This document shows positions 13,654-21,449 of a stretch of DNA of 21,449 nt, piece by piece. The stretch lies in IMG/VR virus record IMGVR_UViG_3300046314_000160, positions 1 through 21,449 of that record; one strand, 5' to 3'. Made by a program: the position numbers and the translations under genes. The first letter of the stretch is position 1. Every line of letters starts with the position of its first letter. The notes under the pieces were generated by a model that did not search any database, was not told the DNA's origin, and saw only the letters and a program-made list of their open reading frames with translations. Source of the DNA: a virus.

Positions 13654-15896
13654 CAGTTCACCGCCGCGTCATAGGGTTCAAGTCCGATTATATCGCCGTT
13701 GCCATCGCGCACGATACGCTTGGGCCGTTGCGCGCCTTGCAGTTGATCACTCACCGCCCCGACCATCGCGGAAACCTGCTGCAAAACCTGCATCATCTCA
13801 TTGCCGCGCGCGTCAACGGGCGAGCCGTCCTCGCTTTGGGACATGCCAAGCTTGGTGAATTCAAGCCGCTGATTTGCCGCCAGTTCCTCGCGCTTAAACG
13901 CCAATTCCTGCGAAGCTAGCATAAGCTGCGTTTCGCGCTCCGCCTGCTTAACCGCAAGATCGGCTTCCATTTGCGCCGCCTCTTTCTGCGTGCTGGCCTG
14001 CATTTTCGCCTGTTCAAGCTGCATGGTGGATTGCAGCTTGGCCTGCTCGACCTGCATATTGGCCTGCATTTTCGCTTGCTCAATCTGCATGGTCGCTTGC
14101 ATTTTCTGCGCGTTTGGATCGGGCGCGTTCTTGGCCGCGTCCAGCTTGGCCTGCACTTCTTCGGGGTTCGGATCGGTGAAGAACATGCTTGGGTTTTTCA
14201 CGCCCGCCGCCTCGACCATCCGCACCGTCGCGTTGTAAACCTGATCAGGCTTCACAAATGGGTTATCAGGCCCAAACGCCATAATCATCTTTTCCTGCAT
14301 TGCCATGATTTGCTGCATCATCATCATGTCGCGCTCACGGGTGCCCGCGCCTAGGCCCGTGTTAACCGTGCAATCCATTTCAGAATTCCAGTCGCGCGGG
14401 TCAACCTGCACCCACTTGTTGCGAAGCCGAACCGTGCGCGGGATGTCTTGATGCCGAATAATCATGCGCAAAAGCCCACGGAACAGCCGCTTAAGCCCAT
14501 CCGCCGCCGTCTTAACCATCAGTTCAGTCTGCCCGATGCCAGCCTGTTCAATCATGGCTGACGCCTTGGCCGTCATGTTTTGTAGAGCATCAGGCGCAAG
14601 GCCAGCCGATGCGTCACTTACGCCCGTGCGGTCCTGCGCTTCCTTGTCCATGTATTCCATCATGGCGAAGGAATTGGATGCCACGAATGGAACCTGATTA
14701 AACCCAAGCGCCGCCCGAACGTCCACCCCTTGCCGAACACGGATAGGCAGGCCGAATTCAGGGTTCATCACCGCGTCCATATTGGATACAACGCCCTCTT
14801 GCACCGTCGGCTGTGGGTTGTTTTGCCAATAGATGTTATCGAGTGTTTGACGCAGCAGCACGGTTTTAACCCGCTGCAAATCCATCAGGTCGTCAGCGAG
14901 CGACACCGCTTCCCATTGGTGCGGTTGGCGCATCACGCAGATATCGGTGAATTGCACCTCATCGCATTCCTCGTCGGAAAGCAGGTGCCGCTCTGTCAGC
15001 CCGCCTGCAAAGCACATATGGTGCAATTCGGCAATGCCGTCGCCGTCCATGTCAATTCGAACAAAAAGGTCGTAGTAATCTACCTCGGAATTCGGCCCGG
15101 TTTCTTCCGCCTCGCGCGTGATATTATCGCGGCGAATGTCGCGTTCTGTGTCGTCCTCGTCAGCCGTTGGCAGATCGCGGATAAGCTCGAAGTCGTAGCC
15201 CATTGCGACAAGATCGCTCTTGCGCATGGTCGTCTTTTCGCCTGTCAGAATGCTATCGTCTAGCGTCACGGCGTCGGGGTGGATCAGGAACCGTTCGCGC
15301 GGAACCGCAGCAATGCGGGTTTTGCGGCTTGTGATTGCCCGCTTGATCTTGCAGTCATAGACGGTGACAACCTGCTGTTGCCCGCCCTCTTCAACCGTTT
15401 CTTGCCGCTCGGATCGCTCCACAACCTCAACGCCATCTTCACCGATCAGTTGCAAAACCGCGTCCTCGGTCAAGCCAGAGTGTGACGAAAATGCGGCAGT
15501 TTTCTTTTCCTCAAACCACCATTTGATCACGCCATTTCGGTGCAAAAGCGCGTCATGAATAGCGTCATAGATCGCGTTGCGGCCATCGGATTCAGGGATA
15601 ACAACGTAGTTGATGTAATCGGATGCCTGTTTAGCGGCTTCCTCGTCGCCCTCACCCACGGGCATGAATTCGACAACCTCGTCGGCATTCAAGATCGTGC
15701 GAACAATGGAAGGGAGCACCCGCTTAATATTCGCCCGAACATCGCGCGTCACCATGCTGGACTTGCCCTTGTCGCTAGGCGTGTCGGCCATAGTGCCTTG
15801 ATAGTATTCCGTCGCTCGGATGCGGTCTTTTGACTGGCTTTCCGCGTGGCGCTCGGCCTCACCCACCAAATTCGCAATGATCTTGATATCAGCCAT
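13653..15896 (-). CDS. portal protein (P22-type, with hendecad coiled-coil barrel)
   Basis: A 747-residue protein matching the P22-like portal family. It has an N-terminal helical segment (DRIRATEYYQGT), VTRDVRANIKRVLPSIVRTI with EVVEFMPVGEGDE (about 50-85), and a wing region ending in PHQWEAVSLADDLMDLQRVK (about 320-340). The RTGVSDASAGLAPDALQNMT motif (about 420-440), typical of this family, is followed by a stem/crown part. Residues about 596-650 form at least five tandem 11-residue repeats (QATMQIEQAKM, QANMQVEQAKL, QSTMQLEQAKM...), the hendecad pattern of a long helical barrel. The portal forms the dodecameric DNA gate at one capsid vertex. Its ATG shares one base with the terminase stop (TAATG), with AAGG 7 bases upstream. 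The length is normal for P22-type portals. Confidence 0.92.
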   Translation of the reverse strand: MADIKIIANLVGEAERHAESQSKDRIRATEYYQGTMADTPSDKGKSSMVTRDVRANIKRVLPSIVRTILNADEVVEFMPVGEGDEEAAKQASDYINYVVIPESDGRNAIYDAIHDALLHRNGVIKWWFEEKKTAAFSSHSGLTEDAVLQLIGEDGVEVVERSERQETVEEGGQQQVVTVYDCKIKRAITSRKTRIAAVPRERFLIHPDAVTLDDSILTGEKTTMRKSDLVAMGYDFELIRDLPTADEDDTERDIRRDNITREAEETGPNSEVDYYDLFVRIDMDGDGIAELHHMCFAGGLTERHLLSDEECDEVQFTDICVMRQPHQWEAVSLADDLMDLQRVKTVLLRQTLDNIYWQNNPQPTVQEGVVSNMDAVMNPEFGLPIRVRQGVDVRAALGFNQVPFVASNSFAMMEYMDKEAQDRTGVSDASAGLAPDALQNMTAKASAMIEQAGIGQTELMVKTAADGLKRLFRGLLRMIIRHQDIPRTVRLRNKWVQVDPRDWNSEMDCTVNTGLGAGTRERDMMMMQQIMAMQEKMIMAFGPDNPFVKPDQVYNATVRMVEAAGVKNPSMFFTDPNPEEVQAKLDAAKNAPDPNAQKMQATMQIEQAKMQANMQVEQAKLQSTMQLEQAKMQASTQKEAAQMEADLAVKQAERETQLMLASQELAFKREELAANQRLEFTKLGMSQSEDGSPVDARGNEMMQVLQQVSAMVGAVSDQLQGAQRPKRIVRDGNGDIIGLEPYDAAVN

Positions 15897-19701: not shown

Positions 19702-20111
19702 AACCGCCTCCACATAATCCGCCCGTTGGTTTTCCTGCACTCGACCTTTTCATCGGAAACCATTGCCCGCAATAGCGACCGGGCGGCGGTGTTGCTGATT
19801 TCCAGCTTTTCCGCAATGCCGGGGATTGCGTCGGTGAATTCGTCCGTGAGCGATGCCAATGCAACTTGCCGCTGATTGGACATTGGCCGGGGCTTGCGTG
19901 GTGAGCCTTGATTTCCCGCTTGGTTATTCGGGGCGAGGGCGCGATGCTTATCGCCACGCTCTATCCGGTGCATGGCCTGCACTGCGGTTAGGCCCAGCGC
20001 CATGAGTTCCGCCACCCGCCCCGCATAGAGGGCAGGCTTTGGCGCGGAAACGGGCGGCAGAACGCGGGCACTGGTGGCGGTTCGGTAGGCTGTCATAGGG
20101 GTGGGTTTCAT
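19698..20111 (-). CDS. winged-helix-like DNA-binding protein
   Basis: A 137-residue protein. The N-terminal half is basic and probably flexible (ATSARVLPPVSAPKPAL), with a helix around GRVAELMALGLTAVQAMHRI. The C-terminal 60 residues look like a winged helix: ALASLTDEFTDAIPGIAEKL, then the recognition-helix-like EISNTAARSLLRAMVSDEKV and a terminal wing ECRKTNGRIMWRRL. It likely binds DNA as an accessory or regulatory protein. The ATG overlaps the methyltransferase stop by 4 bp and has AGGA 8 bases upstream. It is not a recognisable CI or Cro. Confidence 0.7.
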   Translation of the reverse strand: MKPTPMTAYRTATSARVLPPVSAPKPALYAGRVAELMALGLTAVQAMHRIERGDKHRALAPNNQAGNQGSPRKPRPMSNQRQVALASLTDEFTDAIPGIAEKLEISNTAARSLLRAMVSDEKVECRKTNGRIMWRRL

Positions 20112-20734
20112 GCTGTGATTCCTGTCAGATAATCATCTGGCATTTCAAGCTGTTTCCGACACGGTGGAATCCACCCCATATGGGTTGGGCCATTGTGCAA
20201 GTGCTTCCAAATGATCCAGCAATAAGCGGTTGCCGTGCTGCCTTTCGCTGATAGCTTGCCTTTGTGCATTACAACTCGCTCCGAAAATTGCAACACAAGG
20301 GTGGGCGGGGTTACGCTGAACAGCCCGCGATAACGGCCTACCCCCTCAAGGAAGGCACTGCGAACAATAACCGCAACTCCCTCGCGGCTTGTCTCCAATG
20401 CCCGCACGATGAATTGCTCTGCCAGTTGAAAGGGCGGGTTTGTGATTGTCCAATCGACAGTCTCAGGGTTAGGGCCGAACAGATAATCCTGAACCGGAAA
20501 GCCAGCGCCATAGTCGTGAATATCAGACGCCTCGACATTGCCGAAAAATGCGCGCAATGGCTTGACCATATGCCCACGATTCGCAGCAGGCTCACGGCAG
20601 GTTGACTTCAGCAATGGGTTTAGGCGTTGGAGCATTGCCCGTGTTGCCCACGGTGGCGTTGGGAAGTCTCCAAGCGACCCATGCGGCTCTCTGTTTTGCT
20701 GCATAACCGCCGATGACGTATTTTGCAAACTCAC
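20108..20734 (-). CDS. DNA (adenine-N6) methyltransferase-like protein
   Basis: A 208-residue class I methyltransferase-like protein. FPTPPWAT (24-31) is a common entry motif. A motif I-like segment is EPAANRGHM (48-56), and an acidic residue sits in SDIHDYG (70-76). The catalytic motif IV is TNPPF (98-102), of the (D/N/S)PP(Y/F) type that flips adenine. The rest (VAVIVRSAFLEGVGRY, then STATAYCWIIWKH) matches a small phage methyltransferase type. It may protect phage DNA from restriction or only modify specific sites. The GTG at 20734 overlaps the upstream stop by 4 bp (GTGA) and has GGAGGG 7 bases upstream. An ATG at 20704 would shorten it by 10 residues. Motif I has Asn where Gly is usual, so SAM binding needs testing. 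Confidence 0.8.
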   Translation of the reverse strand: MSLQNTSSAVMQQNREPHGSLGDFPTPPWATRAMLQRLNPLLKSTCREPAANRGHMVKPLRAFFGNVEASDIHDYGAGFPVQDYLFGPNPETVDWTITNPPFQLAEQFIVRALETSREGVAVIVRSAFLEGVGRYRGLFSVTPPTLVLQFSERVVMHKGKLSAKGSTATAYCWIIWKHLHNGPTHMGWIPPCRKQLEMPDDYLTGITA

Positions 20735-20991
20735 GCCTCGACCCTCCGCTTTAACGCCGCCCGGAGTGCTTCCTGCGCGGCCTCGGTGAATTTCCCGTTG
20801 TCGGACATGGCGCGGGTCATTTTCACGTAATAATCGCGCGCGACATGGATGGAAACATCGGCAGCTTTAGCCGCCTCTGACATCGGATAATCCAGCATTA
20901 GCCCCCTGATCACCGCATAGGCAACGGCGGGGCTTGGACACGTGGCGGCGTATGCCTCAGCGCGGGGGGTGTAGTCGATGGGGGTGGTCAT
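20731..20991 (-). CDS. small HTH-like helical protein
   Basis: An 86-residue protein from an ATG at 20991 (MTTPIDYTPRAEAYAATCPS...). This start overlaps the upstream stop by 4 bp. A longer frame from 21066 would run deep inside the upstream gene and begins with an unnatural Cys/Arg-rich stretch, so it is rejected. The segment YPMSEAAKAADVSIHVARDY (about 35-54) has helix-turn-helix character, and the C-terminal helix is EAAQEALRAALKRRVEA. The family is unknown to me. DNA binding is plausible. Confidence 0.68.
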   Translation of the reverse strand: MTTPIDYTPRAEAYAATCPSPAVAYAVIRGLMLDYPMSEAAKAADVSIHVARDYYVKMTRAMSDNGKFTEAAQEALRAALKRRVEA

Positions 20992-21449
20992 TCTGACGCC
21001 GCGCTTTCCGCCGCAAGGCGCTGCATGTCTGCCATTGCAACATCGTTGCTTTCGTAAAAACGGCATGGGCTGATTTGGTATCCGCTGGCTTTGTAGATCA
21101 ACTGCGCAGCAAGCGCCGTGTCGTGAAACCGCTCAAGTGTATACCCCGCATCTCCAGCTAAATGCACAACCCACCCAGCGCGGCAATGGGTGGTGTTGCA
21201 CGTGTGCCATGAAGCCATATCAAGCGCACCCGCATTGCTAACAGCGCCCAAAACAACCGAATGGATATTTTCAATTTTAGGCACAATTGGCGCAACAAAA
21301 TCGCCAACCTCGTCGGAGCAGTCGGAGCAGCGGGAGCAGCCAGAGCAGTCGGAGCAGCCAGAGCAGCCAGAGCAGTCGGAGCAGCCAGAGCAGCCAGAGC
21401 AGTCGGAGCAGCCAGAGCAGTCGGAGCAGCGGGAGCAGCAGGAGCAGCC
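20988..21449 (-). CDS. Cys-Ser-X repeat protein with conserved THCRAGW domain, 5' end beyond window
   Basis: The frame is open from the stop at 20988 to the right edge (153 visible residues). Residues nearest the edge are a Cys-Ser-X tripeptide repeat of 15 full units (X is mostly Asp or Gly, some Arg, one Cys). They run in frame through DEVGDFVAPIVPKIENIH into a C-terminal domain of about 95 residues with DMASWHTCNTTHCRAGWVVH and a helix with LAAQLIYKASG. Small phage proteins with this HTCxTTHCRAGW domain are common, and I recall similar Cys-rich repeats in front of it, but no function is known. An internal GTG at 21284 gives a shorter 98-residue version. The continuity of the frame makes the longer form more likely. 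The conserved Cys/His residues suggest metal or redox chemistry (inference). Confidence 0.72.
   Translation of the reverse strand, partial: GCSCCSRCSDCSGCSDCSGCSGCSDCSGCSGCSDCSGCSRCSDCSDEVGDFVAPIVPKIENIHSVVLGAVSNAGALDMASWHTCNTTHCRAGWVVHLAGDAGYTLERFHDTALAAQLIYKASGYQISPCRFYESNDVAMADMQRLAAESAASE
21312..21449 (-). repeat. 9-bp tandem repeat encoding Cys-Ser-X, continues past right edge
   Basis: Fifteen full units of a 9-base motif run in the + strand form GTCGGAGCA or GCCAGAGCA, with variants GCGGGAGCA and GCAGGAGCA. The array is still open at the window end. On the minus strand units read TGC-TCC-GAC (CSD), TGC-TCT-GGC (CSG), TGC-TCC-CGC (CSR) and one TGC-TCC-TGC. The Ser codon is always TCT before Gly and TCC before the others, so units were copied as DNA blocks. 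Units alternate in D-G-G style groups of 27 bp in the middle of the array. Confidence 0.95.

What the first reader, a model, noticed from the sequence alone, without database searches (positions are those of the whole stretch)
21309..21449. In-frame Cys-Ser-X tripeptide repeat made by a 9-bp tandem array
Fifteen consecutive CSX units (X = Asp, Gly, Arg or Cys) occupy the visible N-terminal part of a phage protein, so one residue in three is Cys. The repeat lacks stops in all six frames, but only the CSX frame leads into the conserved HTCNTTHCRAGW domain. The Ser codon is linked to the X residue (TCT with Gly, TCC with the rest), which shows unit-level DNA copying, and a 27-bp D-G-G order suggests multi-unit duplication. 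Such an array could vary in length between relatives by slippage or recombination. A Cys-dense stretch might bind metals or form a disulfide/solenoid structure, for which no function is established.
Basis: partly seen in the sequence, partly recalled or inferred. Interest (0 to 1): 0.75.

Follow-up and report, generated by a model that had tools for sequence, protein, structure and literature searches.

The report
Phage protein with hypervariable Cys-Ser-X array
A phage gene encodes a long chain of near-identical three-residue Cys-Ser-X units in which only the exposed third residue varies, and related phages put completely different repeat scaffolds on the same tail domain, which suggests a fast-evolving binding surface of a kind not yet described.

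Summary
The array is real and in frame: 15 CSX units at 21312-21446 (minus strand), cut off by the contig end. It is not the N-terminus. A contig with 100% identical flanks shows the whole gene: a 37-residue N-cap, 44 CXX units and the HTCNTTHCRAGW domain.

The family is large: 358 relatives in viral contigs, and prophages in several bacterial phyla. Within arrays the Cys and Ser codons are homogenised. Only the first two bases of the X codon vary (mean pairwise difference 0.49, wobble 0.03; 60 of 60 arrays). X is almost always an NRY codon (D, G, R, Y, N, S, H).

Arrays gain, lose or change units while 3-4 kb of flank stays 100% identical (three contig pairs). The same C-terminal domain also follows pentapeptide, hexapeptide, YdcK-type, HEAT and other repeats. 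A second C-terminal domain follows CSX or hexapeptide repeats.

Most likely this is an exchangeable solenoid (probably an in-out-out beta-helix with a Cys core) that displays a fast-evolving recognition surface, joined to a conserved effector or docking domain, in phage early regions. The solenoid is inferred; the target is unknown. Metal storage and RiPP precursor are disfavoured. No Pfam family or paper found describes the CSX repeat.

The parts
21312..21446 (-). 15 CSX tripeptide units (9 bp each), 3' part of a longer array cut off by the contig end; X = C,R,D,G,D,G,G,D,G,G,D,G,R,D,D
21291..21311 (-). linker EVGDFVA between array and C-terminal domain
20991..21290 (-). conserved C-terminal domain (PHROG_31265) with WHTCNTTHCRAGW motif; AlphaFold2 all-alpha, pLDDT 90, no PDB fold match
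20988..21449 (-). visible part of the CDS, 5' end missing (N-cap of about 37 residues and about 29 further units expected from L002)
20731..20994 (-). next downstream ORF, 87 aa, overlaps the end of the CSX gene by 7 bp; no PHROG found
20108..20734 (-). DNA methyltransferase (PHROG_799), same strand

Best explanation
The feature is the 3' end of the repeat module of a modular phage protein: N-cap, CSX array, linker, C-terminal domain. Shown by sequence: the array is in frame between conserved domains, its units are copied at DNA level, the Cys and Ser positions are fixed while X is kept diverse, arrays differ where flanks are identical, and the same C-terminal domain is carried on many unrelated repeat scaffolds. 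Inferred: the array folds into a slim beta-helix with one inward Cys every three residues (in-out-out, as in the 12-residue coil of beetle antifreeze protein) and displays Ser and X outside. The displayed X residues are an evolvable recognition surface that brings the conserved C-terminal domain to a variable target (host factor, defence protein or rival phage) early in infection or lysogeny. The target and the chemistry of the C-terminal domain are not known.
For: Positional diversity in 60 arrays: X base 1 0.51, base 2 0.47; Cys and Ser bases 1 and 2 0.000; all wobble positions at most 0.053. Ser codon heterozygosity 0.04 in the array against 0.78 in other ORFs, X residue 0.72. X is NRY in about 98% of units. 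Pentapeptide arrays show the same nonsynonymous-over-wobble excess. Array changes against flanks: window/L002 11 mismatches, all in the array, 0 in 3318 bp; L182/L185 28 and 25 units, 0 in 3030 bp; L047/L049 two units changed, 0 in 3945 bp. Two tandem copies in L025: N-cap 99.0%, C-terminal part 98.2% identical, arrays of 46 and 53 units in different order. The same C-terminal domain follows Pfam Pentapeptide, Hexapep, YdcK solenoid and HEAT repeats; tree: nine repeat types, 12 changes. A second C-terminal domain follows CSX or hexapeptides. AlphaFold2: confident N-cap and a bridge at every third residue in the first units. The antifreeze coil has exactly this in-out-out pattern (PMC8038014). 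Neighbours are repressors and recombination genes.
Against: AlphaFold2 confidence falls below 40 after about 7 units and no PDB fold matches. X order has only weak periodicity (lags 3 and 4, z about 2.7). No target, no assay. Tandem arrays are hard to assemble: 20 of 80 viral relatives break off at the contig end, as the window does, so some array differences could be assembly errors, although L049 and L050 from two metagenomes agree perfectly. CSX is close to one clade on the C-domain tree, so CSX/pentapeptide swaps were few.
Confidence: 0.5

Rival explanations
1. Inert structural spacer: the array only separates N-cap and C-terminal domain; X is free to be any turn-compatible polar residue, and the array drifts by slippage.
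For: Unit number varies from 4 to about 50 and arrays reshuffle freely. X is limited to polar or turn residues, as a surface position would be.
Against: If X changes were neutral, wobble positions should vary as much; they vary about 15 times less on average, and less in every one of 60 arrays. An inert spacer does not explain the same signature in pentapeptide arrays.
Confidence: 0.25
2. Metal or redox protein: the CxxCxxC array binds zinc, iron or copper, or forms Fe-S or disulfide ladders as its function.
For: Every third residue is Cys, and the C-terminal domain also holds invariant Cys and His.
Against: Homologues with the same C-terminal domain use repeats with few or no Cys. Diversity at X is not needed for metal binding.
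Confidence: 0.1
3. RiPP precursor: the Cys/Ser repeats are cyclised to thiazoles/oxazoles, as proposed for heterocycloanthracin (strain-variable Cys-Xaa-Xaa repeats, PMC2674419).
For: Composition-level NCBIfam hit to TIGR03601 in 2 of 57 members; strain-variable CXX repeats in both.
Against: The array is internal, between two conserved domains; no cyclodehydratase or other RiPP maturation enzyme among the neighbour families shown; scaffold swaps with repeats poor in Cys.
Confidence: 0.04
4. Localised hypermutation (for example a diversity-generating retroelement or another directed process) writes the X codons, whatever the protein does.
For: Variation is confined to two bases per 9-bp unit and to NRY codons.
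Against: Retroelement mutagenesis of AAC codons would give NNC, with T or C at base 2, which is almost absent; no reverse transcriptase among the neighbour families shown. Shuffling of a few unit types plus selection is enough.
Confidence: 0.08

Closest known systems
Pentapeptide repeat proteins (PF00805; MfpA, Qnr), review PMC8145042
   Same: Short DNA-homogenised repeats with fixed core residues and variable outward residues; in this very gene family they occupy the same place before the same C-terminal domain.
   Different: Unit of 3 not 5 residues, Cys not Leu/Ala core, no PF00805 match; the review text does not mention phages; no gyrase link shown.
Beetle hyperactive antifreeze protein TmAFP (1EZG)
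   Same: An inward residue every third position (C, S, C, A), Cys-rich core, right-handed beta-helix of 12-residue coils (PMC8038014); weak phmmer similarity, E 0.12.
   Different: Not shown to be homologous; no TxT ice face; the beetle protein is secreted and disulfide-bonded, whereas no signal peptide is evident in the phage N-cap (by eye).
Heterocycloanthracin/sonorensin bacteriocins (TIGR03601; PMC2674419)
   Same: Tandem Cys-Xaa-Xaa with unit-level indels between strains.
   Different: C-terminal core peptide after a leader, with cyclodehydratase in the genome; here an internal array between conserved domains without such enzymes nearby.
TAL effectors and variable lymphocyte receptors (from general knowledge)
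   Same: Near-identical repeats with hypervariable exposed positions joined to a constant domain.
   Different: No homology, no known ligand, unit of three residues.
PHROG_31265 and PHROG_15341
   Same: Match the C-terminal domain (57 of 57) and the N-cap plus array (55 of 57) of this family.
   Different: Catalogued as unknown function; the scaffold exchange and the X diversity are not described there.

Membership tests
PHROG_31265 (unknown function) | Profile match to the C-terminal domain | tested here: met
   E 2.7e-26 for the window protein, 57 of 57 relatives
PHROG_15341 (unknown function) | Profile match to N-cap plus CSX array | tested here: met
   L002 E 3.2e-22 over residues 9-125, 55 of 57 relatives; the window shows only the array part, E 1.7e-5
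Pentapeptide repeat proteins (PF00805) | Tandem A(D/N)LXX units, Pfam match | tested here: not met
   No Pfam pentapeptide match for the window protein; the sister protein L102 matches
Beta-solenoid proteins | Regular coils with inward core ladder | tested here: inconclusive
   Bridge at every third residue in the first units only, low confidence further on
Heterocycloanthracin-type RiPP precursors | Leader plus C-terminal CXX core, modification enzymes in the genome | tested here: not met
   Array is internal before a conserved domain; no cyclodehydratase among neighbour families shown; enzymes elsewhere in host genomes not searched
Metallothionein-like proteins | Metal bound by the Cys cluster | not testable with these tools
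   Needs purified protein
Anti-phage defence systems (PADLOC-DB) | Match to a defence model | tested here: not met
   0 of 57 members

The most novel reading that the evidence does not exclude
A phage-wide class of modular recognition proteins in which a conserved C-terminal effector domain is carried on interchangeable, rapidly reshuffled repeat scaffolds (CSX, pentapeptide, hexapeptide, HEAT and others) whose exposed residues are diversified by selection, i.e. a phage counterpart of repeat-based recognition systems, with the CSX array as a new Cys-core solenoid.
Probability: 0.35. Interest if true: 0.88.

Novelty: new variant of a known kind. Interest (0 to 1): 0.64.

Why it matters
The CSX repeat has no Pfam model and no paper was found that describes it, yet it occurs in hundreds of viral contigs and in prophages of several bacterial phyla. 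The pattern (core fixed, one exposed residue per unit diversified, units reshuffled within nearly identical phages, whole scaffolds exchanged on one constant domain) suggests recognition under an arms race. It gives a natural, minimal binding scaffold for testing and a handle on what these early phage proteins bind.

Tried and rejected
Non-coding repeat: rejected (N-cap with ribosome site, Ser kept through both TCN and AGY codons, variation confined to the X codon). GTG at 21284 as start: disfavoured, since relatives start upstream of the array, mostly with good ribosome sites. Metal storage and RiPP precursor: see rivals. PDB and BFVD fold searches gave no informative match beyond a relative and a weak Gordonia phage protein. 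Conserved gene neighbour: none recurs in more than 3 of 52 loci. Coil size from periodicity of position 2 or X: too weak. Literature searches on CSX, tripeptide repeats and phage pentapeptide repeats: nothing on this family.

Full report
OBSERVATION. The minus strand of 21312-21446 holds 15 consecutive CSX units in the ORF that ends at 20988; the ORF is still open where the contig stops. Tandem Repeats Finder reports a 9-bp array and a 27-bp, 5-copy higher-order array at 91% identity. All six frames are free of stops. In the window Ser is TCT before Gly (6 of 6) and TCC otherwise (9 of 9). The window is a virus record of 21,449 bases with terminase, portal and major head genes on the same strand.

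THE COMPLETE GENE. A 30.9-kb viral contig (L002) is 100% identical to the window over 3,318 bp after the array. It shows the whole protein: an N-cap (MDNKEITWVTDANGNKCSDAYFGTIEKAQAALDSLVD), then 44 CXX units, the linker and the C-terminal domain, with a purine-rich ribosome site before the start. The array is therefore internal. The window stops inside it, as an assembly break would: 20 of 80 viral relatives are also open at the contig end.

FAMILY. The first viral scan found 358 relatives; nearly all of the 80 fetched have the same order N-cap, CSX array, linker, C-domain as far as the contig shows it, with about 4 to 49 units. Relatives lie in genomes of Kaistia, Phyllobacterium, Bosea, Rhizorhapis, Dyadobacter, Spirosoma and others. 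The isolated Flavobacterium phage FL-1 carries a 36-unit array. The C-domain and the N-cap plus array match PHROG_31265 and PHROG_15341, both of unknown function. No Pfam family reaches its cut-off for the window protein, and PADLOC has no match.

WHAT VARIES. In 60 distinct arrays the mean pairwise difference between units is 0.51 and 0.47 at the first two bases of the X codon, 0.000 at bases 1 and 2 of the Cys and Ser codons (runs were chosen as CS-X, so this part holds by construction at residue level), and at most 0.053 at any wobble base. X exceeds wobble in 60 of 60 arrays (Wilcoxon p 1.6e-11). Ser codon heterozygosity is 0.04 in arrays against 0.78 in other ORFs of the same loci; Asp 0.03 against 0.48; X residue 0.72. 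Different phages fix different Ser codons (TCG, TCC, TCA, TCT, AGC, AGT), so Ser is kept as a residue while units are homogenised as DNA. X is NRY in about 98% of 1,670 units, mostly GAC, GGC, CGC, TAC. Neutral unit copying would homogenise X as much as the wobble bases; the excess therefore points to selection for X diversity, or to directed mutation (inference).

TURNOVER. Window and L002 differ at 11 positions in 3,459 bp, all in the array; the window array can be read as the L002 array with two blocks removed. L182 and L185 have 28 and 25 units and no difference in 3,030 bp of flank; L047 and L049 differ in two units and nowhere else in 3,945 bp; L049 and L050, from two metagenomes, are identical throughout. 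L025 carries two tandem copies with 99.0% identical N-caps and 98.2% identical C-terminal parts, but arrays of 46 and 53 units in different order. These are metagenome contigs, so assembly error cannot be excluded for each case.

SCAFFOLD EXCHANGE. Of 264 ORFs with the C-domain, about half carry pentapeptide repeats and about 40% CSX arrays; the shares reflect the queries used and are not a census. Others carry hexapeptide left-handed beta-helix repeats (L204, L216: PF00132), a YdcK-type solenoid (L274: PF18836), HEAT repeats (L221: PF02985), and further unnamed repeats (L096, L263, L267, L271). On the C-domain tree nine repeat types need 12 changes (at least 8); CSX needs 3, so it is close to one clade, and forks are poorly resolved. 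A second C-terminal domain without visible similarity (QVVCGCFxG) follows CXX arrays in viral contigs and hexapeptide repeats in Bacteroides phage BF766P1. CSX arrays are thus one interchangeable module among several solenoids. Pentapeptide arrays show the same low-wobble, high-nonsynonymous pattern.

STRUCTURE. AlphaFold2 gives a confident all-helical C-domain (pLDDT 90) without a PDB match, and a confident N-cap followed by bridge residues at every third position in the first CSX units; confidence falls below 40 further on. The beetle antifreeze coil has inward residues exactly every third position, two of four being Cys (PMC8038014). A 12-residue coil with four inward Cys is the simplest model for CSX; this is inference, and the X periodicity at lags 3 and 4 (z about 2.7) does not settle coil size.

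CONTEXT AND FUNCTION. Neighbours include repressors and Cro-like regulators, RecT, ERF and YqaJ recombination proteins, SSB and endonuclease VII, so the gene often lies in the early region; the exact neighbour is not conserved. The most economical reading is a binding protein: variable displayed surface, constant C-domain. Target and activity are unknown. Metal storage, RiPP precursor and inert spacer are the rivals; the spacer is the strongest of them.

NOVELTY. The gene family is catalogued in PHROGs without function; the CSX repeat has no Pfam entry that matches and no paper was found. It is best filed as a new variant of solenoid repeat proteins, with unusual evolutionary behaviour.

Noticed in passing
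L082 (Flavobacterium phage FL-1, KY421186.2) 1503-2316: The record's annotation calls a CDS (1612-1956) in the wrong frame across the CSX array (read as A-P-[VI] repeats). The CSX frame and the end of the C-terminal domain lie in different frames from the CETTHC motif on.
   Followed up: partly
L025 2407-5434: Two tandem CSX genes with near-identical ends but scrambled arrays, followed by a third protein with decapeptide repeats and a diverged C-domain (CGTAMCTAGH).
   Followed up: partly
L397-L424: A second C-terminal domain (NPxR..IGSR..QTT.YW..QVVCGCFxG) follows CXX arrays in viral contigs and hexapeptide repeats in Bacteroides phage BF766P1.
   Followed up: partly
L319, L337: CSX arrays followed by a short LTKEEYExK tail, a third C-terminal context.
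   Followed up: no
L041 2767-3300: The CSX array is read in another frame (AAP) before the C-domain: a frameshift, either a sequence error or a broken gene.
   Followed up: no
window 13985-14106: 33-bp tandem repeat of 3.7 copies in the C-terminal part of the portal gene (11-residue MQxEQAKxQ-like repeats).
   Followed up: no
L263 1033-1800: 22-residue repeat (HPLPAGLTSIGGSLxVxGYT) before the same C-domain; its main variable residue is again Y/C/D by TAC/TGC/GAC.
   Followed up: partly
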